The notes beneath the pieces were generated by a model. It saw nothing but the letters and a program-made list of their open reading frames with translations. It did no database searches and had not been told where the DNA came from. Positions 2,583 to 36,759 of a DNA stretch of 64,000 nucleotides are shown piece by piece (position 1 is the stretch's first letter; the number at the start of each line of letters is the position of its first letter). Source of the DNA: Chlorobiaceae bacterium (lineage in GTDB: Bacteria; Bacteroidota; Ignavibacteria; UBA10030; SZUA-254); the NCBI GenBank assembly GCA_013824245.1, contig PNNN01000049.1, positions 121,068 to 185,067 of the forward strand, in the 5' to 3' direction. The position numbers and the translations under genes were made by a program.

Positions 2583-3734
2583 ATGAGAGATGTAGTAGTA
2601 ATAGGAGCCGGCATGACGAAGTTCGGCGAGCTTTGGGGCAAATCAATAAAAGATATTTTTGTTGAAGCCGCCCTGAAAGCAATCGAAGATGCCGGAGTAA
2701 AACAAATCGACTCGATGTACGTCGGTGCAATGTCGTCGGGATTGTTTGTTGGACAAGAACACTTAGGTGCGGTGATGGCAGATTACCTTGGTGTTACTCC
2801 GATTCCGGCAACACACGTTGAATCGGCTTGTGCATCGGGCGGTGTTTCGTTCCGACAAGCATATTTAGAAGTCGCTTCCGGTGCGAGTGATATCGTACTT
2901 GCAGGCGGTGTTGAGAAGATGACAGACGGCGCCGATGTAACAGAAGCGCTGGCAACTGCCGCCGATCAGGAGTATGAAGTGTATCAGGGCGTTACGTTTC
3001 CCGGATTGTACGCCATGATCGCACACGCGCACATGAAGGAATTCGGCACAACCCGAAAACAACTTGCCGCGGTCGCTGTGAAGAATCACAGAAACGGAGC
3101 CAAGAATCCGAACGCACAATTCCGCTCGGAGATTACGATAGATCAGGTACTTAACGCGACGATGGTTTCGGATCCGTTCGGGCTGCTCGACTGCTCACCA
3201 GTGAGCGATGGAGCCGCAGCCGTAATTGTTACGACGATGGAAATGGCAAAAAAACTTAAGAAGAAACCAATCAAAGTTATCGCATCTGCTCAAGCTTCAG
3301 ATACGATAGCGCTTCACAGCCGACCGAGCATAACCACTATCGGTTCAGTTGTGAATGCCGCGAAGAAAGCGTACAAGATGGCGGGATTAAAACCGTCGGA
3401 TATCGATCTTTGCGAGGTGCACGACTGCTTTACGATTGCCGAGATTGTTGTCTCGGAAGATTTAGGATTTTTCAAAAAAGGCGAAGGTGGAAAAGCCGCT
3501 GAGAAAGGTTTAACCGCCATCGGAGGAAAAATTCCAATCAACACAAGCGGCGGACTGAAATCTAAAGGTCATCCGGTTGGAGCAACAGGCATCGCACAAA
3601 TAATTGAACTTTATGAACAACTCAATGGCAAAGCAGGTGACCGTCAGGTTAAAGGCGCGCGGATCGGTATGGCGCAAAACATGGGCGGAAGCGGCGCAAG
3701 CTGTGTCATTCATATTTTGGAAGGTGGAAAATGA
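2583..3734 (+). CDS. Thiolase family protein (archaeal-type acetyl-CoA C-acetyltransferase)
   Basis: [51 protein letters not shown] motifs of SCP2/archaeal thiolases. Confidence 0.93.
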
Positions 3735-4123
3735 TTACTGCACGTTATCATCGCGAAGTTCCTCAACGCTATCGGCTCGAAGCAGGCAAATGCACAAAGT
3801 GCGGATATGTTGCTTTTCCGCCGCGGCTTGTTTGTCCGAAATGCAGCACGAAAAAATTCAAACCAATCGTGTTGAAGGATGAAGGTAAAATAATTACCTA
3901 CACTGTAATCCGTGTGGGACCCGATAAATTTTCAAAAGAAACTCCATACGCAATCGGGATTATCGAATTGAACGATAAACTCCGCTTGACTGCTCAAATT
4001 GCTGGTGTGGTTGATTTTGAGAAACTGAAGATCGGACAAAAGGTAAAGCTTGTCTTCCGAAAAATTCAGGACGATGGCAAAGCCGGAATCCACATGTATG
4101 GGTATAAAGCTGTTTTAGCTTAA
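3731..4123 (+). CDS. Zn-ribbon/OB-fold (DUF35) acyl-CoA-binding protein
   Basis: [20 protein letters not shown] rubredoxin-like Zn ribbon then OB fold; ATGA overlap with the thiolase stop. Confidence 0.92.
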
Positions 4124-4130
4124 GAAAAAA

Positions 4131-11710: not shown

Positions 11711-11959
11711 ATGCCAAATATTGATGAAATAAAGAAAACAATTGAAACACTATCTCCTGATGATTATGGGAAATTAAGACAATGGTTTTCAGAGAGAGAT
11801 TGGGAAAGATGGGATGAACAAATTGAGAATGATTCGAAATCCGGGAAGCTGGATTTTCTGGTTAAAGAATTTGAAGATGATGACAAAATATTTAGTGAAG
11901 CTCGTCTTCCGCAAAATACAGGACGACGGCAAAGCCGGAATCCACATGTACGGGTATAA
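11711..11959 (+). pseudogene. Truncated antitoxin-like gene running out of frame into a DUF35 remnant
   Basis: MPNIDEIKKTIETLSPDDYGKLRQWFSERDWERWDEQIENDSKSGKLDFLVKE then divergent C-terminus encoded by 11898-11975. Confidence 0.6.
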
Positions 11960-11975
11960 AGCTGTGTTGGCTTAA
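11898..11975 (+). pseudogene. 3'-terminal 26-codon remnant of a second DUF35 gene
   Basis: Reads [25 protein letters not shown], identical at protein level to 4046-4123; 71/78 nt identical, all 7 differences synonymous. Confidence 0.9.
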
Positions 11976-11983
11976 ATAAAATA

Positions 11984-12045: not shown

Positions 12046-12209
12046 AAAAATACGCAAGCTGGGAAGGAGTTCTACTCCTGACCCAAGGAGAGCAGGGATT
12101 TGATTTTGTGTCTTTTTCATCATACATTAACGCTGAAATTATAGAAGAACAAGTTGAATAAGAAAATAGCAATCTCACTGCCTGTATGTTAGCACGACAT
12201 AGGGCAGTA

Positions 12210-12225
12210 TAATTAATAGTTAGGT
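12210..12225 (+). other. attC-right-end-like box (tAATTAATAGTTAGGT)
   Basis: GTTAGGT matches the GTTRRRY core; shares TATAATTAATAGTTAGG with 20169-20185 and AATTAATAGTTAGG with 34419-34433. Confidence 0.5.
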
Positions 12226-12292
12226 TGCGATTTGGAAAAATTAAATATTTTTTTCTAAAGAAGAGTTTTTAGTAACAGAGAAGGAGAATTAA

Positions 12293-13639
12293 ATGAGAAT
12301 ATCACGTATTTCTATCAAAGGTCTATTCGGAATATTTACACACGAAATTGGCTTGAAATCTGACGAGCGCATTACAATTATTCATGGACCTAATGGCGTA
12401 GGCAAAACAGTGATTCTAACCATGATCAATTCATTCTTTTGTGGGCGTTATGGTATTTTTCAGAGCATCCCATTCGAAGAATTTTCGATAGCATTTGATG
12501 ATGGTAGAATCCTTAATCTTAAAAAGATTCCAAGGCCGACTGACCCAAACCTGCCACCTCACAAACGTCAGGATGATTTAATATTGGAATTTCATACGGA
12601 AGGTTCTAAGCCTTTATCATATCCTCTTAAACCTTTGCAAGATATTAGGCTTCAAATGCCTGTACAGATGATAGAACAAGTTATCCCTGGACTAGAAAGT
12701 ATTGGTCCAGCTACTTGGCATTATTTACCAACACAAGAAATCTTATCTATCGAGGATATTGTAGAACGATTTGGGGATAGACTACCTATTGAGAGACGTC
12801 CTAAAGAAACACAACCAGAATGGCTTTCTGAAATTAAAAAGGGCATTAGTGTAAAATTTATAGAAACTCAGCGTTTGCTAACATATTCAAAGATTAGAAG
12901 ACAAAGAGAATTCGAAGATAAACCTTCAATGATTCCTGCTGTACGAACCTATTCTGAAGAACTTGCTACAATGATTCAATCAAAGTTAGCTGAATATGCT
13001 TCGCTTGCTCAATCCTTGGATCGATCATTTCCGACACGACTCGTGAAAGGCTCTGGTACAATTCATTCAACAATCGATCAGCTTAGAAACGATCTCAATT
13101 CACTCGAAGAAAAGCGAGCACGATTAGAAATTGCAGGTCTTCTAGACAGAGATCCAGATGTTGACTTTCGAGAATTTCTCAATATAGATGCTAATAATAG
13201 TTTTGTTTTATCAGTTTATATCGATGACGTAAAAAAGAAATTGGCTGTGTTTGATGAATTGTCTAATAAAATTGATCTCTTAGTTAAAATTATCAATAAT
13301 CGTTTTCTATTCAAAGAAATGTCAATAAGCAAGAAAGATGGTTTCGTATTTAAAGCATCAAATGATAAAAAAGTTCCAACAGCAAGTCTCTCCTCTGGTG
13401 AACAGCATGAGCTTGTATTATTCTATGAATTACTATTCAAGGTAAAACCTTCGTCGCTTATTCTTATAGATGAACCAGAATTATCATTACACGTTGGTTG
13501 GCAACAACAGTTTCTAAATGACATAGAGGATATAACAAAATTGACAGGTTTTCATATCCTTATAGCTACACATTCACCTCAAATAATTCATGACCGTTGG
13601 GATATTACTGTAGAGCTTAAGGGGCCACAGAATGCTTAG
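12293..13639 (+). CDS. AAA/ABC-type ATPase, AriA-like (PARIS) defence ATPase
   Basis: Walker A GPNGVGKT, signature LSSGEQHELVLFYELLF, Walker B SSLILIDEPELSLH, H-loop ILIATHSPQII; overlaps a DUF4435 gene. Confidence 0.85.
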   Translation: MRISRISIKGLFGIFTHEIGLKSDERITIIHGPNGVGKTVILTMINSFFCGRYGIFQSIPFEEFSIAFDDGRILNLKKIPRPTDPNLPPHKRQDDLILEFHTEGSKPLSYPLKPLQDIRLQMPVQMIEQVIPGLESIGPATWHYLPTQEILSIEDIVERFGDRLPIERRPKETQPEWLSEIKKGISVKFIETQRLLTYSKIRRQREFEDKPSMIPAVRTYSEELATMIQSKLAEYASLAQSLDRSFPTRLVKGSGTIHSTIDQLRNDLNSLEEKRARLEIAGLLDRDPDVDFREFLNIDANNSFVLSVYIDDVKKKLAVFDELSNKIDLLVKIINNRFLFKEMSISKKDGFVFKASNDKKVPTASLSSGEQHELVLFYELLFKVKPSSLILIDEPELSLHVGWQQQFLNDIEDITKLTGFHILIATHSPQIIHDRWDITVELKGPQNA

Positions 13640-14483
13640 TTGTTTGACAGCAAACGATATCGCAAACACTGTACGCCTAACGCGGACAACATTTGCTGGG
13701 GCAATCGTAATTACTGAGGGTGGTACAGATATTAGGGTGTATGAGCGTTTTCTTAACAAACCTCGTTGTCGGTTCATACCTTCGAACGGTAAGCCCAATG
13801 CAGTAAAAGCCACTTTAATACTTGATGGTGAAAACTTCGCAGGGCTGTTAACAATTGTAGACGCTGATTTTGACTATTTAGAATCGATTACTCCTCCAAG
13901 CCCAAATATTCTTTTCACTGATACACATGATCTCGATACGATGCTTTTAGGTTCATCATCACTTGATAAAGTTTTGAGCGAACTATTATCTATCCCAAAA
14001 GCGAAGAGCATGCCTGCTCCTATTCTTACTCTTGCCTTTCAAGCAGCATTACCGGTAGGCTATTTTCGATGGATTTCATCGCCACATAAAGATAACTTAG
14101 GTCTGAAATTCAAAGGTATTGTTTTTGCTAATTTTGTTACAACTCCATCTTTTACTACAAATGTTGATGATATGATCAACGAAGTTACGAGGGTTACAGG
14201 TTCTTGTTCAATTGATGTTACAAATATTAAAGCACAGCTTGCGACTCTCAATTCCGGCTCTTTTGACAAATGGCAGGTTTGTTCTGGACACGATTTGGTT
14301 GAGTTGCTTTATTTGGCTCTGAAGATACACTGGGGTAATCATCGCTTATTATCAATTACATCTGATATCTTTGCTGCAATGCTTCGGATGGCTTATGAGT
14401 ATTCTGATTTTAAGTCTAGTAATCTATTTCGCCAAATATTAGCCTGGCAAACAAATAATGCTTCATTTCAAGTCATACAGTAG
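13632..14483 (+). CDS. DUF4435 (TOPRIM-like) protein, AriB-like
   Basis: ITEGGTDIRVYERFL...NGKPNAV..., LLTIVDADFDYLES, ILFTDTHDLDTMLLGS; 8-bp overlap with the upstream ATPase. Confidence 0.82.
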   Translation: MLSCLTANDIANTVRLTRTTFAGAIVITEGGTDIRVYERFLNKPRCRFIPSNGKPNAVKATLILDGENFAGLLTIVDADFDYLESITPPSPNILFTDTHDLDTMLLGSSSLDKVLSELLSIPKAKSMPAPILTLAFQAALPVGYFRWISSPHKDNLGLKFKGIVFANFVTTPSFTTNVDDMINEVTRVTGSCSIDVTNIKAQLATLNSGSFDKWQVCSGHDLVELLYLALKIHWGNHRLLSITSDIFAAMLRMAYEYSDFKSSNLFRQILAWQTNNASFQVIQ

Positions 14484-14513
14484 ATTAATTATATACATCA
14501 CTCGGCAAAACGC

Positions 14514-14581
14514 AACCTAACCAACAGCTCAAGCTGACGGAATGATCGCACTGCAATTTGCATGGCTGGCAACGGTTTAGA
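14514..14581 (+). other. attC-left-end-like element downstream of the ATPase/DUF4435 pair
   Basis: aaCCTAACCAACAGCTCAAGCTGACGGAATGA...gctggcaacggtttag; near-identical to 34954-34982. Confidence 0.5.
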
Positions 14582-14601
14582 ATAAATTTGAAAGCTAAAG
14601 G

Positions 14602-15576
14602 ATGGATAATAAAATGAAAGCTATAGTTTATCATAAATATGGATCACCCGATGTTCTTGAATTAAAAGAGGTAGAAAAACCTACTCCAAAGGATGATGAA
14701 GTCTTGGTAAAAATTCATGCGGCATCCCTGAATGCATATGACTGGCATGTCATGAGAGGTAAACCGTTCTTGGTGCGCCTAATGGGCTTTGGGTTTCTGA
14801 AACCAAAAAAACAAATCCTCGGAGCTGACATGGCGGGGCGGGTTGAAGCGGTTGGCAGAAACGTAAAACGGTTTCAGCCGGATGATGAGGTATTCGGGAC
14901 CATATCGGGCAGTTTTGCCGAGTATGTATGTGCTCGTGAAAAATATCTGGCGTTGAAACCGGCAAATATGTCGTTCGAGGAAGCAGCGGCTGTACCTATG
15001 GCGGCAATCACCGCCCTGCAGGGTCTTCGCGACAAAGGACAGATTCAGCCAGGGCAAAAGGTCTTGATCAATGGTGCGTCTGGTGGTGTTGGTACGTTCG
15101 CTGTGCAGATTGCCAAATCGTTCGGGGTTGAAGTGACTGCCGTGTGCAGCACAAGGAATTTGGACAAGGCGCGCTCGATTGGCGCTGATCAGGTCATTGA
15201 TTATACTCAAGAAGATTTCACCAAAAATGGGCAGCGGTATGACCTGATTCTTGTTGCTAACGGACATCAATCGATTTTAGATTACAAGCGTGCATTAAGT
15301 CCCAAGGGAATTTGTGTCATAGCCGGAGGAGGTTCCATGACTCAAATGTTCCAAGCCATGCTGTTAGGACCATTGATATCAAAGACCGGGAGTAGGAAAA
15401 TGTATAACATGCTGGCGAAACTAAACCAGAAAGATTTGGTCTTTCTAAAAGAGCTTCTTGAAGCCGGCAAAGTAGTACCTGTTATAGACAGACGTTATCC
15501 GTTTAGTGAGGTTCCTGAAGCTCTCCGGTACCTTGAAGAAGGACATGCCCGAGGGAAAGTTGTTATCACACTGTAG
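14602..15576 (+). CDS. NAD(P)-dependent alcohol dehydrogenase / quinone oxidoreductase (MDR family)
   Basis: MKAIVYHKYGSPDVLELKEVEKPTPKDDEVLVKIHAASLNAYDWHVMRG..., VLINGASGGVGTFAVQIAKSFG. Confidence 0.93.
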   Translation: MDNKMKAIVYHKYGSPDVLELKEVEKPTPKDDEVLVKIHAASLNAYDWHVMRGKPFLVRLMGFGFLKPKKQILGADMAGRVEAVGRNVKRFQPDDEVFGTISGSFAEYVCAREKYLALKPANMSFEEAAAVPMAAITALQGLRDKGQIQPGQKVLINGASGGVGTFAVQIAKSFGVEVTAVCSTRNLDKARSIGADQVIDYTQEDFTKNGQRYDLILVANGHQSILDYKRALSPKGICVIAGGGSMTQMFQAMLLGPLISKTGSRKMYNMLAKLNQKDLVFLKELLEAGKVVPVIDRRYPFSEVPEALRYLEEGHARGKVVITL

Positions 15577-15696
15577 TGCCGCTGCTTAATCAGCGGCTCA
15601 ATCTGAATATCTAGACATCTAAGTTATTCCTACCCGATTTTGTTTTATCTTCTATTCTGCTTAATTTAAATCAAAGTTTACTATATGAAGATATAT

Positions 15697-15764
15697 TTCA
15701 CGAAGGAACACGAAGAAAAAGATTTCACGAAGAACCACGAAGCTTTTCCGTGATCTTCGTGTAA
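15697..15764. repeat. CACGAAG hairpin repeat
   Basis: ttcacgaaggaacacgaag...cacgaagaaccacgaag...ccgtgatcttcgtgtaa. Confidence 0.7.
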
Positions 15765-18453: not shown

Positions 18454-19896
18454 TTGCAAAAATTTTTCCAGTGTATGTGCAGAGATAATCTATCGAGAGG
18501 AAATGATGTTATGACGGAAGACTTAACCCGGCGAATCAATCAGGCGATCTCAAATCAAGAGGCGCAGGCGGAACGGTTAGCTAATTCGGGCCGCATTATT
18601 CTTCTTTCAATCATTACTTTTCTGGCACTCGTCAATATTCAATCTGTATCATTTGAAGCCAACGTAATGAATTTCAGCGTTCTTGCCCTTGGCTATTCAT
18701 ATGGTTTGATTGTTTATATAAGGATGCGCCACTTCGGTTATCATCCTTTTATGAAGTATTTTACCTCCTGTCTTGATGTCATCCTGGTTTTTCTATTACT
18801 GTTTCTATATACCCGGATAGAAATTCCGGCAGTTGCATTGAAGAATTATGTATTCGTCATACTCTATCCACTTATTGGTTTGACCGCCTTCCGGTACGAC
18901 AAGAATCTAACATGGATCGCAGGAGGATTGACGGTCATCTTGTATATTGCACTTGTTTGTTATCTCTATTTCCTTAATGCAATCGAATTGACATCGGGAG
19001 GATACGAGCGTGAGCTTTTTACTCGTGAAGTAACATACATCGGGCAGGCAACAAAATTAATTCTCCTCATTGGATTTATTGCGTTGATCGGTTATCTGGC
19101 TCAGTATTCTCGCCGGCTGATCATCAAACTGGTTCGTGATGAGTCAACAATTAGACAGGAGCAGGAACAGATTCAGGCGGAGCTTCAGGTTGCATCTCAC
19201 GTTCAGCAGCAATTCGTTCCGCGTTCTTTCCCTACGATCTCAGGTCTCGATCTATACGGCATAGTCGAACAAGGTAAATTTGTTGGGGGCGATTATTGTG
19301 ATCTAATTGAGCTGGCACATGATCGGGTTCTCATTGTTGTAGCCGATGTCTCAGGTAATGGAGTGCCTGCCGCATTAATCATGGCGGAAGTGCGAGCTTC
19401 GGTTCATCTTCTTGCTCAAACGGAAATCGGGTTAGAACAACTAGTTGAGCGATTAAACATTTTACTGTTTGAAAGTACACAAAAGAAAAATTTCGTTACG
19501 TTTTTTGTGGCAGAAATAGATACGACGAAGCAAATTATTTCATATGTGAATGCAGGTCATCCGTCACCACTTATACATACCGATGGTGAGATTCGTTCGT
19601 TGAAGAAAGGAACAATCCCTCTCGGTGTTCGTTCGATATTGCCAAACATGACGAAGCAGGTTGAAGAATTTCGGATTGGTAGCACTATTGTCTCTTATAC
19701 CGATGGACTTCTTGAGCAATTCAATTCACAGGAAGAACAATATGGTGAGCAGCGGCTGTGTGAATTCTTCCAATCGAATGTTCACTTGGATGCTCGGACA
19801 TTTGTTCAACATCTTTTAGAACAGGTGAAGGATTTTAGTAAAGGAAAAGTGCTCGATGACGATGTCGGTCTCGTGGTTGTAAAATTTTTGAATTGA
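18454..19896 (+). CDS. Membrane PP2C/SpoIIE-type serine phosphatase (start may be 18511)
   Basis: QQQFVPRSFPTISGLDLYGIVEQGKFVGGDYCDLIEL, VVADVSGNGVPAALIMAE, SYTDGLLEQFN. Confidence 0.88.
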   Translation: MQKFFQCMCRDNLSRGNDVMTEDLTRRINQAISNQEAQAERLANSGRIILLSIITFLALVNIQSVSFEANVMNFSVLALGYSYGLIVYIRMRHFGYHPFMKYFTSCLDVILVFLLLFLYTRIEIPAVALKNYVFVILYPLIGLTAFRYDKNLTWIAGGLTVILYIALVCYLYFLNAIELTSGGYERELFTREVTYIGQATKLILLIGFIALIGYLAQYSRRLIIKLVRDESTIRQEQEQIQAELQVASHVQQQFVPRSFPTISGLDLYGIVEQGKFVGGDYCDLIELAHDRVLIVVADVSGNGVPAALIMAEVRASVHLLAQTEIGLEQLVERLNILLFESTQKKNFVTFFVAEIDTTKQIISYVNAGHPSPLIHTDGEIRSLKKGTIPLGVRSILPNMTKQVEEFRIGSTIVSYTDGLLEQFNSQEEQYGEQRLCEFFQSNVHLDARTFVQHLLEQVKDFSKGKVLDDDVGLVVVKFLN

Positions 19897-19984
19897 GCGA
19901 AACTTGACGGCAAGCTAACGCGGGGGATTTGATTTTGTATCTTTTTTATAATATATTTGCGCTAAATTTAAAACAGTTTATATT

Positions 19985-20122
19985 ATGGAAGTAACCGAAA
20001 ATAAATCTCAATTACTTGATCAGATGAGGGTAATAGATTTAGAGAATTCTTCGTGCGGCACTGGGAAAAAACTTACACGAAGAAACACGAAGGAATACAA
20101 AGAACCACGAAGAGATAAAAAC
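19985..20122 (+). pseudogene. Possible 5' remnant of an integron-type tyrosine recombinase gene
   Basis: ATG frame MEVTENKSQLLDQMRVIDLENSS...; ...QLLDQxR resembles the start of integron/phage integrases; a similar copy lies at 34139. Confidence 0.35.
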
Positions 20123-20131
20123 TTCGTGAAA
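20074..20131. repeat. CACGAAG hairpin repeat
   Basis: acacgaagaaacacgaaggaatacaaagaaccacgaag...aacttcgtga. Confidence 0.6.
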
Positions 20132-20144
20132 TAAAAAATATGTT

Positions 20145-20185
20145 CCTAACGATATACAACCGTGTAGTATAATTAATAGTTAGGT
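20145..20185 (+). other. attC-like element: CCTAAC ... GTTAGGT
   Basis: cctaacgatatacaaccgtgtagtataattaatagttaggt; inverted CCTAAC/GTTAGG ends with imperfect inner pairing. Confidence 0.45.
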
Positions 20186-20221
20186 AGCCACAAATAAATA
20201 TCATTGGAATGGAGGATTGTT

Positions 20222-20647
20222 ATGTTTAAATCATTTTTGTCAATTCGTAACATGATTGTCTCGTTAATACTCCTCGTAGCTTGTTGCATACTCGGCTTTG
20301 CTGCTTCTGCTGTCGGTATTGACGACAATCCATCTGGCATAGCACTTGCGTTTCTTTCTACCATTGCATTGGTTCTCGCTTTCGTCCATCCATTGAGAAC
20401 CTCAAAGCAGTTCCGTTATCTCATATACGCGTCAGGCATAGGATTAATTATTTTTGCCGTTCTTCACAACGTGTTTGAGGGCATAGCCTCGAAGGTAGGG
20501 GAAGCAAACCTATCTTATGGTTTACTCCAAGGTGCTGGTGTTGCATTCTTTTTTATCGCCATTTTGGTTTGCCCAATTGGTTTGTTGGTCGGTGCAATTG
20601 GTGCTGCTATCACTTCCAGTCGGGAGGGTCGTTCGAAAAAAATGTGA
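20222..20647 (+). CDS. Hypothetical membrane protein
   Basis: MFKSFLSIRNMIVSLILLVACCILG..., four TM segments. Confidence 0.6.
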   Translation: MFKSFLSIRNMIVSLILLVACCILGFAASAVGIDDNPSGIALAFLSTIALVLAFVHPLRTSKQFRYLIYASGIGLIIFAVLHNVFEGIASKVGEANLSYGLLQGAGVAFFFIAILVCPIGLLVGAIGAAITSSREGRSKKM

Positions 20648-20698
20648 TCTACCGGCTTGTTGCAGTCCATTATTGTATTAATAATTTAGGAGTATCAA

Positions 20699-21181
20699 AT
20701 GACAGAAATATATCGCAGTATAAATATTGAAGCACCGGTAAATAAAGTTTTTGAGTATGCTTCTAACTATCAAAAATGGCCAGAGTTTTTCGAGGGAGTC
20801 TCCGACGTTAAGCCGGTAACCGAAACAATCCGCGGAAATGGGGCCAAATTTATTTACAAAGTAAAAGTATTAGGTATGAGGGTTGCTGTAGGAACTGAGA
20901 TTCAACAATTCAAAGAAAATGAAGGTTGGATTGGAAAATCATTCAAAGGTTTAGAGCATCAGACTCAGTGGATTTTTGAGAAGTTAAATGGTAATACAAA
21001 GTTTACATTTATCCAAAATTATAAATTCCCGTTGTATTTTGGAGGAAAGATCATTGATAAAATGTTTGCACAGCATGAATGGATTAAGATAATTGAAAAT
21101 TCACTGCAAAACCTAAAAAGAATAATGGAACAAAAAAACAATAATATGTTTTTGCAAAGTTCAAAGGCAGATGCAAAGTAA
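20699..21181 (+). CDS. SRPBCC-family (polyketide cyclase/dehydrase-like) protein
   Basis: IYRSINIEAPVNKVFEYASNYQKWPEFFEGVSDVKPV. Confidence 0.85.
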   Translation: MTEIYRSINIEAPVNKVFEYASNYQKWPEFFEGVSDVKPVTETIRGNGAKFIYKVKVLGMRVAVGTEIQQFKENEGWIGKSFKGLEHQTQWIFEKLNGNTKFTFIQNYKFPLYFGGKIIDKMFAQHEWIKIIENSLQNLKRIMEQKNNNMFLQSSKADAK

Positions 21182-21263
21182 AGTTCTGTATCGAAGATTT
21201 GTGGATTAGTAATTCCGTTATACTAAACGATAATTCATTACTCATTAACTTAGGAGAGATCAT

Positions 21264-21710: not shown

Positions 21711-21801
21711 TTCACGAAGTACCACGAAGCAAAAAAAATATCACGAAGAACCACGAAGAATCTCAGTGGAACTTCGTGTCTTCTCCGTGATCTTCGTGTA
21801 A
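21711..21801. repeat. CACGAAG hairpin repeat
   Basis: ttcacgaagtaccacgaag...atcacgaagaaccacgaag...cttcgtgtcttctccgtgatcttcgtgtaa. Confidence 0.7.
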
Positions 21802-22036: not shown

Positions 22037-23974
22037 TCATCGTAATTCACCAAGTGATTTTGTGCTATTCGATTTTGTTTCATCAGCCAGTGATTTGACG
22101 ATAGATTCTAATTCTGCCAATCGTTTTGAAAGTTCTTCATTCTTTGTTTTAAATTCTTTATTCTCTGCTCTTAGCTCTATGCTCTCCGCCCTTAGCTCTA
22201 CGCTTGTTTTATATAACTCTTGAATCGCCGCAAGCGCCACACCTGCCGGGTCAATTGTTGAAATTGTTATCTCATCTTCACCCAAACCGAATGCTGCATA
22301 AAAATCCTGAGCCATCGGACCGATATGCTCTATGCTCGGGTCTTGTGTTAGATAACTCCATTGCTTAATAGGCAGATTTCCAACTTTGTCGAGTATATGT
22401 TTTGTATTTACTAAACGGATGTTCCTTTTTTTTGTGCTATCAGAAGCACTTATCCAACCATTACCACCGATAGGAAGTTCTACACCTGCTGTAAGTGCGG
22501 CGTTAGAGTATATACGCGTTCCGTCAGAGGCACGGACATTAAATTGATTAGGTACCCCCGAAGAAAAATCCGCATCATTTTGGTCAGCCCATACGAAGGC
22601 ACCATGGTGATTGGCTTTTGCCCGGCGACCTGCAGCAAATGAATAATTACCAAGTGCGGTGTTAGATTGCCCGCCGCATACTGTTGAACCCCAACCGCTC
22701 GCCGTGTTAGTAGTGCCGCCGCCGACTGTTGCAACATCACCGCTTGCCGCGTTAGCAGTGCCGCCACCAACCGTTGACTGAATACCGCTTGCCGTATTGT
22801 TTCGACCGCCGCTAACTGTTGCAGAAGTACCGCTTGCCGTGTTATCAATGCCACCGCTAACTGTTGTGTAAATATTGCTTGCACTGTTGCTCTCGCCGCC
22901 GCTAATTGTCGCCGAAGTTCCGTTTGTAGTGTTATCAAAGCCACCGCTAACTGTTGCATTCGCCGAAATTGCTTTATTGCTTCTACCACCACCAACGGTA
23001 GAGTAATCACCAATTGCAGAGTTTGAATCTACCTCAGCTCCTCCACCACCGCTAACTACTGAAAATTGTCCGCGTGCCCGATTTTGATTACCGCCACCGA
23101 CAGTTGCATAATCACTGCTTGCGGTATTGTATCTGCCGCCGGCAACTGTAGTTGCAAAACCACTTGTTAAATTCTGAGAGCCACCACCAATAGTTGAACG
23201 CTCACCAGTCGCTAAATTTATTCTACCGCCTCCGACTGTGGAAATTGCACCGCTTGCCTTGTTATTATAGCCGCCACCGACTGTTGCACGAGCACCGCTT
23301 GCCTTGTTAGCCCATCCACCGCCGACTGTGGAAGTTGCACCGCTTGCCGAATTTGAATCCTCTAAACTTGCACCACCTCCTCCGGAAACAACTGAATAAT
23401 CACCACGCGCTCGGTTATTTCTGCCCGCTACAAAAGCATCAGTACCTGTGTTGATGTTGTTAGCTCCGAAATTTCCTTTGCCCATAGTAATAGCTGGATT
23501 ACCCGCGTTAGTTATTGCTCCTGTCATTGTCCCACCTGAAAGCGATAAAAATGTTCCAGACACAGTTGCTTTGGCAAAATTAGCCGTATCGGCTGTTATT
23601 GATTTAATACTATAACCAACCGCAGTCAGAGGTATGCGGGGTGTCATCTGTGGTTGTCCGCCCGCTTGAATTGCTAACCAATATGGTTTGTCAAATGTTA
23701 CCGATGCCCCGAACGGTATAACATCTCCTAAAATTGTTGAGAACAAACCACGGCTTGTCTGGAGAACCTTTGATTCAGTCCATAATTGAGTGCCTTCTGT
23801 AGAGTCATCATACAACCGGAAAGTTAAGCCCCACGATCCGTCGCCGACCGGTTTTCCAAGACTATCCGTTAACACACCTTGGAATGAAATGGTGCGTGGT
23901 ATTTGTGCCGATGATATAGACGTGATTAACACGATTAAAAGTATTACGTTTAGTAATTGAATTAAATGTTTCAT
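22037..23974 (-). CDS. Surface protein with YadA-head-like repeats and C-terminal peptidase S74 chaperone domain
   Basis: Repeated TVGGGxxNxASGxxATVSGG; C-terminal SDSTKKRNIRLVNTKHILDKVGNLPIKQWSYLTQDPSIEHIGPMAQDFYAAFGLG plus coiled coil. Confidence 0.88.
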   Translation of the reverse strand: MKHLIQLLNVILLIVLITSISSAQIPRTISFQGVLTDSLGKPVGDGSWGLTFRLYDDSTEGTQLWTESKVLQTSRGLFSTILGDVIPFGASVTFDKPYWLAIQAGGQPQMTPRIPLTAVGYSIKSITADTANFAKATVSGTFLSLSGGTMTGAITNAGNPAITMGKGNFGANNINTGTDAFVAGRNNRARGDYSVVSGGGGASLEDSNSASGATSTVGGGWANKASGARATVGGGYNNKASGAISTVGGGRINLATGERSTIGGGSQNLTSGFATTVAGGRYNTASSDYATVGGGNQNRARGQFSVVSGGGGAEVDSNSAIGDYSTVGGGRSNKAISANATVSGGFDNTTNGTSATISGGESNSASNIYTTVSGGIDNTASGTSATVSGGRNNTASGIQSTVGGGTANAASGDVATVGGGTTNTASGWGSTVCGGQSNTALGNYSFAAGRRAKANHHGAFVWADQNDADFSSGVPNQFNVRASDGTRIYSNAALTAGVELPIGGNGWISASDSTKKRNIRLVNTKHILDKVGNLPIKQWSYLTQDPSIEHIGPMAQDFYAAFGLGEDEITISTIDPAGVALAAIQELYKTSVELRAESIELRAENKEFKTKNEELSKRLAELESIVKSLADETKSNSTKSLGELR

Positions 23975-33786: not shown

Positions 33787-33967
33787 TGTGAAAAATACGA
33801 ATGTTTTATATCAATCTCAAAAAGAGATATTTGGCCAACCTTTTCGATGCGATTTCAAAGATTTAAGCGTTTTCTCACTTTCAATGGATGAAAACTTTTA
33901 ACTTTTCCATCAAGCCGGGGAAAAGTCCTGCTCCTGACCTACAGAAACACCCATGAAAAAAAATAAT

Positions 33968-34061
33968 TTCACGAAGTGCCACGAAGCATAAAAAATAATA
34001 TCACGAAGAACCACGAAGAACCTCAGTGGAACTTCGTGTCTTCTCCGTGAGCTTCGTGTAA
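33968..34061. repeat. CACGAAG hairpin repeat
   Basis: Near-identical to 21711-21801, including preceding 'ctcctgacctacagaa'. Confidence 0.7.
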
Positions 34062-34138
34062 TAAACGCAGGCGAGAGGTGATTTGATTTTGCCTTTTATT
34101 AATAATATGATAACGCTAAGTTTAAAACGGTTTATATT

Positions 34139-34195
34139 ATGAAAGTAACAAAAAATAATCCTCAATTACTTGATCATATGAGTATAATAAAATAA
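34139..34195 (+). pseudogene. Possible 5' remnant of an integron-type tyrosine recombinase gene (second copy)
   Basis: MKVTKNNPQLLDHMSIIK*; homologous tract to 19955-20100. Confidence 0.35.
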
Positions 34196-34228
34196 GGAAA
34201 ATCCTTCGTGCGGCTCTTGTAAAAAACT

Positions 34229-34310
34229 TACACGAAGAAACATGAAGGAATACGAAGAACCACGAAGAATCTCAGTGGAACTTCGTGTCTTCTCCGTGAG
34301 CTTCGTGTAA
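34229..34310. repeat. CACGAAG hairpin repeat
   Basis: cacgaagaaacatgaaggaatacgaagaaccacgaagaatctcagtggaacttcgtgtcttctccgtgagcttcgtgtaa. Confidence 0.7.
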
Positions 34311-34395
34311 TAAACACAGGCGAGAGGGATTTGATTTCTTTTCTTTTTTATGATACATTCTCACTGTGTTTAATTCTAAATATTTGGCAGTTTTA

Positions 34396-34433
34396 TCCGC
34401 CATTCTTTACGGCGGAATAATTAATAGTTAGGC
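34396..34433 (+). other. attC-right-end-like box with hairpin (ccgccattctttacggcgg...AATTAATAGTTAGGC)
   Basis: GTTAGGC core and AATTAATAGTTAGG shared with 12211-12224 and 20171-20184. Confidence 0.5.
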
Positions 34434-34456: not shown

Positions 34457-34957
34457 ATGGCAACTGGACGTAGCAATCAGCTGATCAAACAAGTTGGTGA
34501 ATATCTTGTTGCCTGTGAGCTTGCCCGAAGGGGTCTTCTTGTCGCGACTTTCTCAGGCAACGTCCCAGATTTCGATCTAATCGCTACCGATTTCAAGGGA
34601 TCATCATGCCCAATTCAGGTCAAGACAATCAAAGGCGGTGCTTGGCAATTCTCGATTGAGAAATTTGCTGACATTACTTTCGAAGGAAACAAGCAGCTTA
34701 TTGGGGCCAAGAAGCCATTGTCGATTTCGCACCTTGTTTGTGTCTTTGTTCTTGCTGCTGAGAAATACGGCGAGGATCAATTCTTCGTTCTTGAATGGTC
34801 ACAGGTTCAAGATATACTAATCGCAAATTACACGAGCTGGCTCGACTCTCATGGCGGAGTGAGACCTAGAAAGCCTGATTCTCTACATTGTTCCATCGTC
34901 CAATCCAATTTGCTAGATCACAAAGACAATTGGTCCATAATTACTGGTAGGCTCTAA
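34457..34957 (+). CDS. PD-(D/E)xK-like nuclease-fold protein in a cassette-like setting
   Basis: VGEYLVACELARRGLLVATFSGNVPDFDLIATDFKGSSCPIQVKTIKGG: E, PDFD, QVK motif series. Confidence 0.7.
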   Translation: MATGRSNQLIKQVGEYLVACELARRGLLVATFSGNVPDFDLIATDFKGSSCPIQVKTIKGGAWQFSIEKFADITFEGNKQLIGAKKPLSISHLVCVFVLAAEKYGEDQFFVLEWSQVQDILIANYTSWLDSHGGVRPRKPDSLHCSIVQSNLLDHKDNWSIITGRL

Positions 34958-34999
34958 CCAGCAGCTCAAGCTGACGGAATGAGCGTAGGTGCGTTAAGT
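34952..34999 (+). other. attC-like element (CTCTAACCAGCAGCTCAAGCTGACGG...GTTAAGT)
   Basis: Stop codon of the preceding gene (34955-34957) lies inside the CTAAC core; GTTAAGT at 34993-34999 fits GTTRRRY. Confidence 0.55.
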
Positions 35000-35051
35000 G
35001 GCACATGGATAAAATCAAATATTTTTGCACAAATTATTTTATGAGGACATC

Positions 35052-35303
35052 ATGCCAACACCCGAAGAAGCGCAAAACAAAGAACTCGACCGTAAACTCA
35101 GCGCTCTCAATAATAATTCTGAATATTATAACAGTATGTCAATTTTTCGTATTCTCTCGGATAGACTAATAGAATCGCTAAATAAAAACGCATCGTCTGC
35201 CAATAGATTATCTTGTACGCTTATTTGGCTTAACGTAATTATGACCATAGGTACTCTTGTTGCAGTGTGGATCGCTGTTATGATGTTTTTGAGGCCACAT
35301 TAA
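35052..35303 (+). CDS. Small protein with one C-terminal TM segment
   Basis: MPTPEEAQNKELDRKLSALNNN...LNVIMTIGTLVAVWIAVMMFL. Confidence 0.55.
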   Translation: MPTPEEAQNKELDRKLSALNNNSEYYNSMSIFRILSDRLIESLNKNASSANRLSCTLIWLNVIMTIGTLVAVWIAVMMFLRPH

Positions 35304-35323
35304 ATTATCTATAAGGGAAACAC

Positions 35324-35941
35324 ATGAAATCACAAAGGTGTCAACCCATGGCCAGTCCGTCCCATGCTGACTATCTAAAACTTCTCGGTTTGATATCTGT
35401 AAGGATGTCCAACATTGAAACCCACATGAGGAACTTCATCAGTGAGATGATTAGCGACGACTATGAACTCAATGTTCGTATTATGGCAGGTAATTCTTTC
35501 ACCGATCTCTTGAGATTGTTGAAATCAGTATTTCCATACCGGGTGTCAGAAAAAAAAGTCTTGCAACAATTCGATGCACTTGCTATCGATCTCAGTAACC
35601 TCAATGACGAGAGAGCGAAGTACATACATTCTGATTGGACGCTGGGAGATGTTGACGGTATTGCAGTCGCAAAGCGGATGAAAGTCTCGAGACATAAAAG
35701 AGGGCTTCGAGTAGACCTGAAGCAGAATGAATTCGAGTTACTCCAAGACTTTCTTGATAAAGTAGAGGTCGTAATTGAGAAACTCACACAACTCAAAGTT
35801 GTGAGCATGCCCATCTACATCGCACATAGAGCCGAAACCGCTAAGAAGCCTTATATGGCATGGGACAAGGATGGGTTCCCAATACGAACTCCCATAAATA
35901 AAACTATCCCGAAGCGTCCCTCAGTTGTGGGGCATTCGTAA
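35324..35941 (+). CDS. Hypothetical helical protein with HEPN-like RxxxxH motif
   Basis: MSNIETHMRNFISEM...LNDERAKYIHSDWTLG. Confidence 0.6.
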   Translation: MKSQRCQPMASPSHADYLKLLGLISVRMSNIETHMRNFISEMISDDYELNVRIMAGNSFTDLLRLLKSVFPYRVSEKKVLQQFDALAIDLSNLNDERAKYIHSDWTLGDVDGIAVAKRMKVSRHKRGLRVDLKQNEFELLQDFLDKVEVVIEKLTQLKVVSMPIYIAHRAETAKKPYMAWDKDGFPIRTPINKTIPKRPSVVGHS

Positions 35942-36066
35942 TAAGCAGATTAAAAATTGAAAGTGAAGTGAATTAACTTGTTTCGTTTGGGACATTTTAA
36001 AAGTTATCAGTACCGCAACTTAGCGGCCATCTGTAAGGTCTCTTCCATGCGAAACTTAGAACAACA

Positions 36067-36597
36067 ATGGTAGACGAAGAAACAATAGATCTCGAGTTCT
36101 ATAAATGGATTTCCCGAAGTCATCTTCTGTATCTCAAACGCCTTAGACTCTTGGGCCATAAGATCGATAATAAGAGAATCGAGACGCTTGAAAAAGAAAT
36201 GTACTCAGAGCTGGATCAGCCTGAGAACCAAGGCGGAGGATTGCTTGGGCAAAGAGACGTAGATGAGTTGCAGTTATTGTTTTCAATTGCTGAAGAGCAA
36301 CCTGCTGTGCGTGCATCTATCAAGGTTAATCTTTGCCAATATGATCACACAGTACTCAGGATGCATCCTGATCACAACCACAAACGCCCGCACTTTCACA
36401 TAGAGTATAAGCAACAATACAAAGCATCTTATTCGATTGATCCATTGGAAAGATTAGCAGGTCATGTACCGGCTCAATACGAAAAGCCCATTCTGGATTG
36501 GGCTTCAACACGTTTGCGAGAATTGAAGCTCACTTGGGATAAATTAAAGTCGGGAGAAGATGTACGGGAATTGGTACTGATAGCGGAAGAGTTCTAA
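36067..36597 (+). CDS. DUF4160-domain protein
   Basis: HPDHNHKRPHFHIEYKQQYKASYSID...LAGHVPAQYEKPILDWA. Confidence 0.65.
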   Translation: MVDEETIDLEFYKWISRSHLLYLKRLRLLGHKIDNKRIETLEKEMYSELDQPENQGGGLLGQRDVDELQLLFSIAEEQPAVRASIKVNLCQYDHTVLRMHPDHNHKRPHFHIEYKQQYKASYSIDPLERLAGHVPAQYEKPILDWASTRLRELKLTWDKLKSGEDVRELVLIAEEF

Positions 36598-36660
36598 ACA
36601 GCAGCTCGTGCTGACCCCGCTTAAAAACGTAGCGGTGCAGGCGGTCTGAGTCCCTCGAAA
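36593..36660 (+). other. Degenerate attC-like element
   Basis: tctaaacAGCAGCTCgtGCTGACcccgcttaaaaacgtagcgg...; stop codon 36595-36597 within it. Confidence 0.4.
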
Positions 36661-36759
36661 AACACTCGGCATAAACTCAAGTACATTTGTCAATCCTACC
36701 CCAAATTTTGTTTTATGAGCGATTATGCGTAATTTAATACCGTAAATATCTCCAGTGAT

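What the first reader, a model, noticed from the sequence alone, without database searches (positions are those of the whole stretch)
12210..14581. PARIS-like AAA ATPase + DUF4435 defence pair framed by integron-cassette-like boundary motifs
Seen: two overlapping ORFs (8-bp overlap) encode a complete ABC-type ATPase (GPNGVGKT, LSSGEQ, LILIDEPELSLH, ATHSPQ) and a DUF4435/TOPRIM-like partner (ITEGGTDIRVYERFL, VDADFDY, THDLDTML). The pair starts about 70 bp after GTTAGGT and is followed by CCTAACCAACAGCTCAAGCTGACGG. Knowledge: AAA ATPase + DUF4435 is the AriA/AriB layout of PARIS, where AriB is the effector nuclease. Inference: a PARIS-family system captured as a two-gene integron-type cassette in an FCB-lineage chromosome.
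Basis: partly seen in the sequence, partly recalled or inferred. Interest (0 to 1): 0.82.

Follow-up and report, generated by a model that had tools for sequence, protein, structure and literature searches.

The report
PARIS-like phage defence in integron cassette
Two intact genes that look like the bacterial anti-virus alarm system PARIS sit in this chromosome as a gene cassette of the integron type, at a docking spot where related species carry different cassettes.

Summary
Two intact, 8-bp-overlapping ORFs (12293-13639, 13632-14483) encode an AriA-like ABC ATPase and an AriB-like DUF4435/TOPRIM protein. Sequence families, PDB sequence searches and AlphaFold plus Foldseek rank PARIS AriA and AriB first, and 78 of 80 AriA-like loci from other genomes have a DUF4435 partner beside the ATPase. 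The pair passes the published PARIS detection rule. Trigger and target are untested.

The cassette reading also holds, with corrections. The left edge G|TTAGGTTGCG pairs with CGCAACCTAAC after ariB; none of 78 homologous loci shows this, nor do 3000 mispaired controls. The right edge is the 5' half of an attC whose complete copies form large integron arrays in same-order genomes. Its 3' half is missing, so the cassette is eroded. The left edge is not an attC but an attI-like site (hairpin + ATAATTAATAG|TT), which in a related genome lies just after a true integron integrase gene.

The most interesting part lies outside the original finding. Two such integrase-free sites, syntenic in three related species, carry different genes in each. 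PARIS and defence-bearing integrons are known kinds, so this is a new member, with an unusual platform.

The parts
12097..12128 (+). Left element GATTTGATTTTGTGTCTTTTTCATCATACATT; repeated before other attI-like sites; possibly a cassette promoter (inference)
   Evidence: five copies in the window; also at the orthologous sites of G001 and G006. The promoter scan did not flag it.
12177..12208 (+). Hairpin ACTGCC/GGCAGT directly before the crossover motif
   Evidence: Alone it is not significant (P 0.11), but 11 of 21 such sites have arms of 6 bp or more against about 8% in shuffles.
12209..12225 (+). attI-like crossover site ATAATTAATAG|TTAGGT
   Evidence: The same motif follows a full integron integrase gene in G020.
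12220..14587 (+). Cassette: from TTAGGTTGCG to the surviving 5' half of its attC
12293..13639 (+). ariA-like gene, 448 aa ABC/AAA ATPase
13632..14483 (+). ariB-like gene, 283 aa DUF4435 TOPRIM nuclease
14511..14521 (+). CGCAACCTAAC: attC R'' box, complementary to the cassette's first bases
14516..14587 (+). 5' half (R''-L'' arm and part of the loop) of an attC; the 3' L'-R' half is absent
   Evidence: nhmmer model positions 2-74, E 4.8e-12; 87% over 53 nt to a complete attC of G431
14602..15576 (+). Zinc-type alcohol dehydrogenase gene, apparently the next cassette of the same eroded array; its start is 96% identical in G006
15585..15606 (+). Weak attC R''-L'' remnant right after the dehydrogenase stop codon
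   Evidence: (E 1.3, position suggestive)
15638..15667 (+). Right element TTTTGTTTTATCTTCTATTCTGCTTAATTT, degenerate copy of the one at 36706
   Evidence: the surrounding stretch aligns in G001 and G006
34414..34430 (+). Second attI-like site (site B); window/G006 homology breaks at the crossover
34457..36597 (+). Cassette genes of site B with attC halves at 34954-35006 (5') and 35969-36038 (3'); G006 has different genes here
36706..36735 (+). Right element of site B, shared with G006 and G001
20169..20185 (+). Third attI-like site ATAATTAATAG|TTAGGT followed by small genes; no attC found

Best explanation
12220-14587 is a two-gene integron cassette carrying a PARIS-family defence pair. It was captured next to an attI-like site in the chromosome and then partly eroded by loss of the 3' half of its attC. 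Working model by homology with E. coli PARIS: AriA forms an ATP-dependent sensor assembly that holds AriB inactive; a phage protein of the anti-restriction, DNA-mimic kind binds AriA and releases AriB; AriB cuts host tRNA in the anticodon stem-loop with its metal-dependent TOPRIM site, halting growth before phage are made. Shown here: gene pair, folds, conserved catalytic residues, cassette edges, attI-like site, attC family, turnover of cassettes at the site. Inferred: expression, trigger, tRNA target, abortive infection, and integrase-mediated capture.
For: Pfam AAA_21 64.5 bits, AAA_15 60 bits and DUF4435 58.9 bits exceed the thresholds of the original PARIS detection rule (27, 32, 27; PMC9122126). 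Best PADLOC models are AriA and AriB. The AriA profile hits PDB AriA at E 2.7e-33, ahead of PtuA at 3.4e-15. AlphaFold models: AriB pLDDT 96.5, whose only PDB match with E<=0.001 is PARIS AriB; AriA pLDDT 84, whose 15 best matches are AriA chains. 78 of 80 AriA-like loci have a DUF4435 gene next to them. E29, D33, D77 and G219 are invariant in 63 AriB homologues, and N34, G35, G37, K38, T39, S367-E370 and D393-P395 in 50 AriA homologues. Cassette: edge pairing unique among homologues, attC profile hit, 28 complete attC with compensatory L''/L' changes in G024/G431/G034, attI-like site next to an integrase gene in G020, different cassettes at the same site in G006 and different genes in G001.
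Against: AriB has no sequence-level match to PDB AriB, and fold similarity is moderate (TM 0.51/0.47), so this is a distant member; trigger and substrate may differ. The attC lacks its 3' half. There is no integrase at the locus, and the closest IntI-like recombinase of this genome matches the integron-integrase profile in two pieces with the stretch between them unmatched, scoring below the curated cut-off (235.9 against 265 bits). No promoter was identified.
Confidence: 0.78

Rival explanations
1. The pair is an OLD/Septu/retron-type ATPase-nuclease defence system rather than PARIS.
For: The ATPase resembles PtuA and retron ATPases and TOPRIM nucleases occur in OLD proteins; the second-ranked AriB fold match is an OLD C-terminal region, E 0.064.
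Against: AriA ranks first by profile and by fold with a clear gap. The partner is DUF4435, not an HNH PtuB. AriB is the only significant fold match.
Confidence: 0.08
2. The edges are terminal inverted repeats of a transposon-like element, not integron recombination sites.
For: The module is exactly framed by a 16-nt inverted repeat.
Against: The repeat sequence differs from element to element while staying complementary within each (GTTAGGTTGCG/CGCAACCTAAC here; GTTAGGTGTGCACC/GGTGCACCTAAC in G006; GTTAGCCAGCAT/ATGCAGGCTAAC in G006:C9). The right side continues into an attC family with L''/L' covariation. No transposase gene is evident.
Confidence: 0.05
3. The cassette inserted at a non-specific genomic secondary site (attG), not at an attI-like docking site.
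For: attG insertion of cassettes into chromosomes is known (Loot et al. 2024, cited in PMC12444791). No integrase gene is at the locus.
Against: The left site is conserved (ATAATTAATAG|TT, usually with a hairpin) across many sites and genera and lies just after an integrase gene in G020. Two such sites are syntenic in related species with different content. attG insertions in E. coli are spread over many loci (PMC12444791).
Confidence: 0.22
4. Genes swapped at these sites by ordinary homologous recombination between flanks, the integron marks being old relics.
For: The attC 3' half is missing and the two species share flanks on both sides.
Against: At site B homology breaks at the crossover base, and the incoming genes carry their own complementary R'' ends.
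Confidence: 0.2

Closest known systems
PARIS (AriA/AriB), Rousset et al. 2022 (PMC9122126); AriB mechanism PMC12409363
   Same: Two adjacent co-directional genes, ABC ATPase plus DUF4435 TOPRIM protein, catalytic residues kept, nearest solved folds AriA and AriB
   Different: Distant in sequence (no direct AriB-PDB match); found as an integron cassette in a chromosome rather than in a P4-like satellite hotspot; trigger and target unknown
Integron cassettes carrying phage defence (Darracq et al. 2025; Getz et al. 2025; Kieffer et al. 2025, cited in PMC12444791)
   Same: A defence module packaged between cassette recombination edges in a chromosome
   Different: Two-gene PARIS-type module; eroded attC; integrase-free attI-like site; no earlier report of a PARIS cassette turned up in the few open-access searches made, which is not proof of absence
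CALIN (cluster of attC sites lacking integrase) and attG insertions
   Same: Cassettes in a chromosome without a neighbouring integrase gene
   Different: Conserved attI-like left end, usually with a hairpin, and a shared right element at syntenic sites with different content between species

Membership tests
PARIS | AAA_15/AAA_21 ATPase gene (>=32/27 bits) next to a DUF4435 gene (>=27 bits) | tested here: met
   60/64.5 and 58.9 bits, adjacent with 8 bp overlap (rule in PMC9122126)
PARIS | Walker A, signature, Walker B and H-loop motifs; TOPRIM Glu and DxD | tested here: met
   the equivalence of E29 with AriB E26 is inferred from motif position
PARIS | AriA and AriB folds | tested here: met
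   TM-scores moderate
PARIS | AriA assembly sequestering AriB | not testable with these tools
   complex not modelled
PARIS | Activation by Ocr or another anti-restriction protein | not testable with these tools
   needs experiment
PARIS | tRNA cleavage and growth arrest | not testable with these tools
   needs experiment
Integron gene cassette | 5' end TTRRRY complementary to the R'' of its own attC | tested here: met
   15 of 16 bases, unique among 78 homologous loci
Integron gene cassette | Complete attC (R''-L''-L'-R') at the 3' end | tested here: not met
   only the 5' half, model positions 2-74 of about 158; filed as an eroded cassette, not an intact one
Integron | Integron integrase gene next to attI | tested here: not met
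   none at the locus; an IntI-like recombinase with its own attC array is on contig C12
Septu (PtuAB) | PtuA ATPase with HNH nuclease PtuB | tested here: not met
   partner is DUF4435

The most novel reading that the evidence does not exclude
Genomes of this family keep several integrase-free attI-like docking sites (promoter-like left element, usually a hairpin, ATAATTAATAG|TT, and at two syntenic sites a shared right element) at fixed chromosomal places. Cassettes, including this PARIS module, are exchanged there by a recombinase acting in trans, so the integron is split over the chromosome rather than built as one array beside its integrase.
Probability: 0.4. Interest if true: 0.68.

Novelty: new member of a known kind. 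Interest (0 to 1): 0.52.

Why it matters
It shows how a PARIS-type alarm can move between distant organisms: packaged as an integron cassette placed first behind an attI-like site. Among 78 paired homologues tested, from archaea to Streptomyces, only this one has cassette edges, so it is a rare capture. The syntenic, integrase-free attI-like sites with different cassettes in three related species offer a testable model of a dispersed integron platform outside Proteobacteria.

Tried and rejected
Folding the right edge alone as DNA gave no stable hairpin (z +0.9), explained later by the missing 3' half. A strict attC hairpin search of the window found nothing, for the same reason. Direct AriB-PDB sequence search gave no hit; the 63-member profile gave only weak matches, best to RNase M5 TOPRIM domains. 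Thiolase-anchored loci in G002, G004 and G007 showed no attI-like site or convincing attC, so site A is not shared by the whole family. Plasmid and phage searches found few distant homologues. A transposon with terminal repeats was rejected because the repeats vary between elements while staying complementary within each.

Full report
What is there. The window (contig C3, bases 121068-185067, of a 3.23 Mb genome) holds two intact ORFs, 12293-13639 (448 aa) and 13632-14483 (283 aa), overlapping by 8 bp. The first has all ABC ATPase motifs; Pfam gives AAA_21 (64.5 bits) and AAA_15 (60 bits), and the second is DUF4435 (58.9 bits). PADLOC ranks AriA first for the ATPase, narrowly ahead of PtuA models, and AriB clearly first for its partner. 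The published PARIS detection rule (AAA_15 >= 32 or AAA_21 >= 27 bits together with DUF4435 >= 27 bits; PMC9122126) is met.

Relatives. A scan of genome contigs with the AriA alignment gave 80 relatives in very different organisms, the closest a Methanosarcinales MAG at 57% identity; 78 of the 80 have a DUF4435 gene beside the ATPase. In 63 aligned AriB homologues E29, D33, D77 and G219 are invariant and G30, D79, D100, R146, H220 and D221 nearly so; in 50 AriA homologues the Walker A, signature and Walker B residues are invariant. In 396 genomes of the same phylum only two others encode a recognisable AriB relative, so the pair is a recent or rare acquisition here (inference).

Fold. AlphaFold2 with the homologue alignment gave a very confident AriB model (pLDDT 96.5) whose only PDB match with E<=0.001 is AriB of the E. 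coli PARIS complex, 8ux9_A (E 2.2e-5, TM 0.51/0.47); an OLD TOPRIM region follows at E 0.06. The AriA model (pLDDT 84) matches AriA chains in the 15 best places, and the AriA profile finds AriA sequences at E 2.7e-33, well ahead of PtuA. Direct AriB sequence search finds nothing, so this is a distant member.

Cassette edges. The edges G|TTAGGTTGCGATTTG (12219) and CAAAACGCAACCTAAC (ending 14521) pair in 15 of 16 positions. In integron cassettes the first bases are complementary to the R'' box of the cassette's own attC (established knowledge). None of the 78 homologous pairs shows this, and 3000 mispaired controls never exceed 9 of 14 against 13 here.

attC family. The motif after R'' (CAACAGCTCAAGCTGACGGAATGA) occurs tens of times in two genomes of the same order (G024, G431), often spaced 0.5-1 kb, and these genomes have integron integrases over the curated cut-off. 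From the fetched loci 28 complete attC sites, 150-231 nt, were extracted; 27 come from these two genomes and one from G034. Their L''/L' arms show compensatory changes (GGCGC/GCGCC, GCGGC/GCCGC, GCAAC/GTTGC, GCGCA/TGCGC, GTTGC/GCAAC). A profile of them hits the window at 14516-14587 (model 2-74, E 4.8e-12), 34954-35006 (5' half) and 35969-36038 (3' half), with weak remnants at 15585-15606, right after the dehydrogenase stop, and 36594-36615. The reversed window gives only one weak hit, E 1.7. So the defence pair, the dehydrogenase and the genes at 34.4-36.6 kb look like eroded cassettes.

Left edge. The sequence before the crossover, ATAATTAATAG, recurs at 20169 and 34414 in the window, elsewhere in this genome and in relatives. 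At nine or so of these sites the following gene ends in a matching R'' box, most of them continuing into an attC-like arm. Hairpins of 6 bp or more directly precede 11 of 21 sites against about 8% of shuffles; three sites have none detected. In G020 the motif lies about 150 bp after a full-length integron integrase gene, the place of an attI. Known minimal attI cores, AAACAAAGTTRRRY and AATAAAATGTTRRRY (PMC12901181), are similarly AT-rich before G|TTRRRY. The left edge is therefore best read as attI-like.

Turnover. At site A, G006 has the same left motif and the same dehydrogenase start (96% identity over 250 bp), but a different two-ORF cassette with its own attC start in between. G001 has the left element with an eroded motif and different genes. 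At site B, window and G006 align up to the crossover and again at prfB, with different cassettes between; G006 keeps a complete attC there (22848-23003 of the reversed contig piece). A right element, TTTTGTTTTATGAGC.ATTATGCGTAATTT, is shared at site B by the three species, with a degenerate copy at site A. G002, G004 and G007 show no such site after the same anchor gene.

Where is the integrase? This genome has an IntI-like recombinase on C12 followed by a normal-looking attC array of another type. It scores 235.9 bits against a 265 cut-off and matches in two pieces, leaving profile positions 180-234 unmatched, the region where integron integrases carry their extra domain (knowledge). Whether it can serve these sites is open.

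How it likely works. By homology AriA is an ATP-dependent sensor that holds AriB until a phage anti-restriction protein binds; AriB then acts as a two-metal TOPRIM RNase on tRNA (PMC12409363, PMC9122126). The genes are intact, but trigger, target and expression here are inferred, not shown. Position directly behind an attI-like site would favour expression of the first cassette, but no promoter was demonstrated.

Verdict. PARIS-family membership is supported on every feature testable by sequence and fold; functional features are untested. Cassette origin is strongly supported, but the cassette is not intact. The two kinds are known separately: PARIS, and integrons as stores of phage defence (papers cited). 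The dispersed, integrase-free attI-like sites are the part that may be new.

Noticed in passing
window 4043-4129 and 11895-11981: An 87-bp direct repeat (88.5% identity): the 3' end of the gene at 3731-4123 is copied at the far end of a 7.8-kb stretch with large secreted-protein genes; partial copies also recur in G002 (L214). Looks like insertion at a gene's 3' end with duplication of the tail.
   Followed up: partly
L019 4440-11450 (G000:C12:54439-61449): A separate integron: an IntI-like tyrosine recombinase apparently lacking the extra integron-integrase region, followed directly by an array of small genes with normal attC sites (TAACAAGGCAAAAAC...GTTTTTGCC..GTTAGG). Similar two-piece matches occur in G001, G002, G006, G030 and G034.
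   Followed up: partly
G024 and G431 (L059, L061, L064-L084): Large integron arrays with at least 19 and 43 copies of one attC family, the central part of the attC also conserved.
   Followed up: partly
window 19880-21220: Relative to G006 a segment with left element, attI-like site C and two small genes is present here and absent there (about 1.3 kb against about 0.1 kb); no attC was found at its right end.
   Followed up: partly
L021 (G000:C20:1-3800, minus strand): Two more attI-like sites; one follows a gene end ...CACCTAAC directly, separated by a long repeat with CCCGCC/GGCGGG arms, and its gene is followed by GGTTGCCTAAC matching its start GTTAGGCAGCC.
   Followed up: partly
window 15700-15760, 20060-20130, 21730-21800, 33950-34320: Dispersed repeats of the type CACGAAGAACCACGAAGAATCTC...GTGATCTTCGTGTAA next to cassette sites and intergenic regions.
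   Followed up: no
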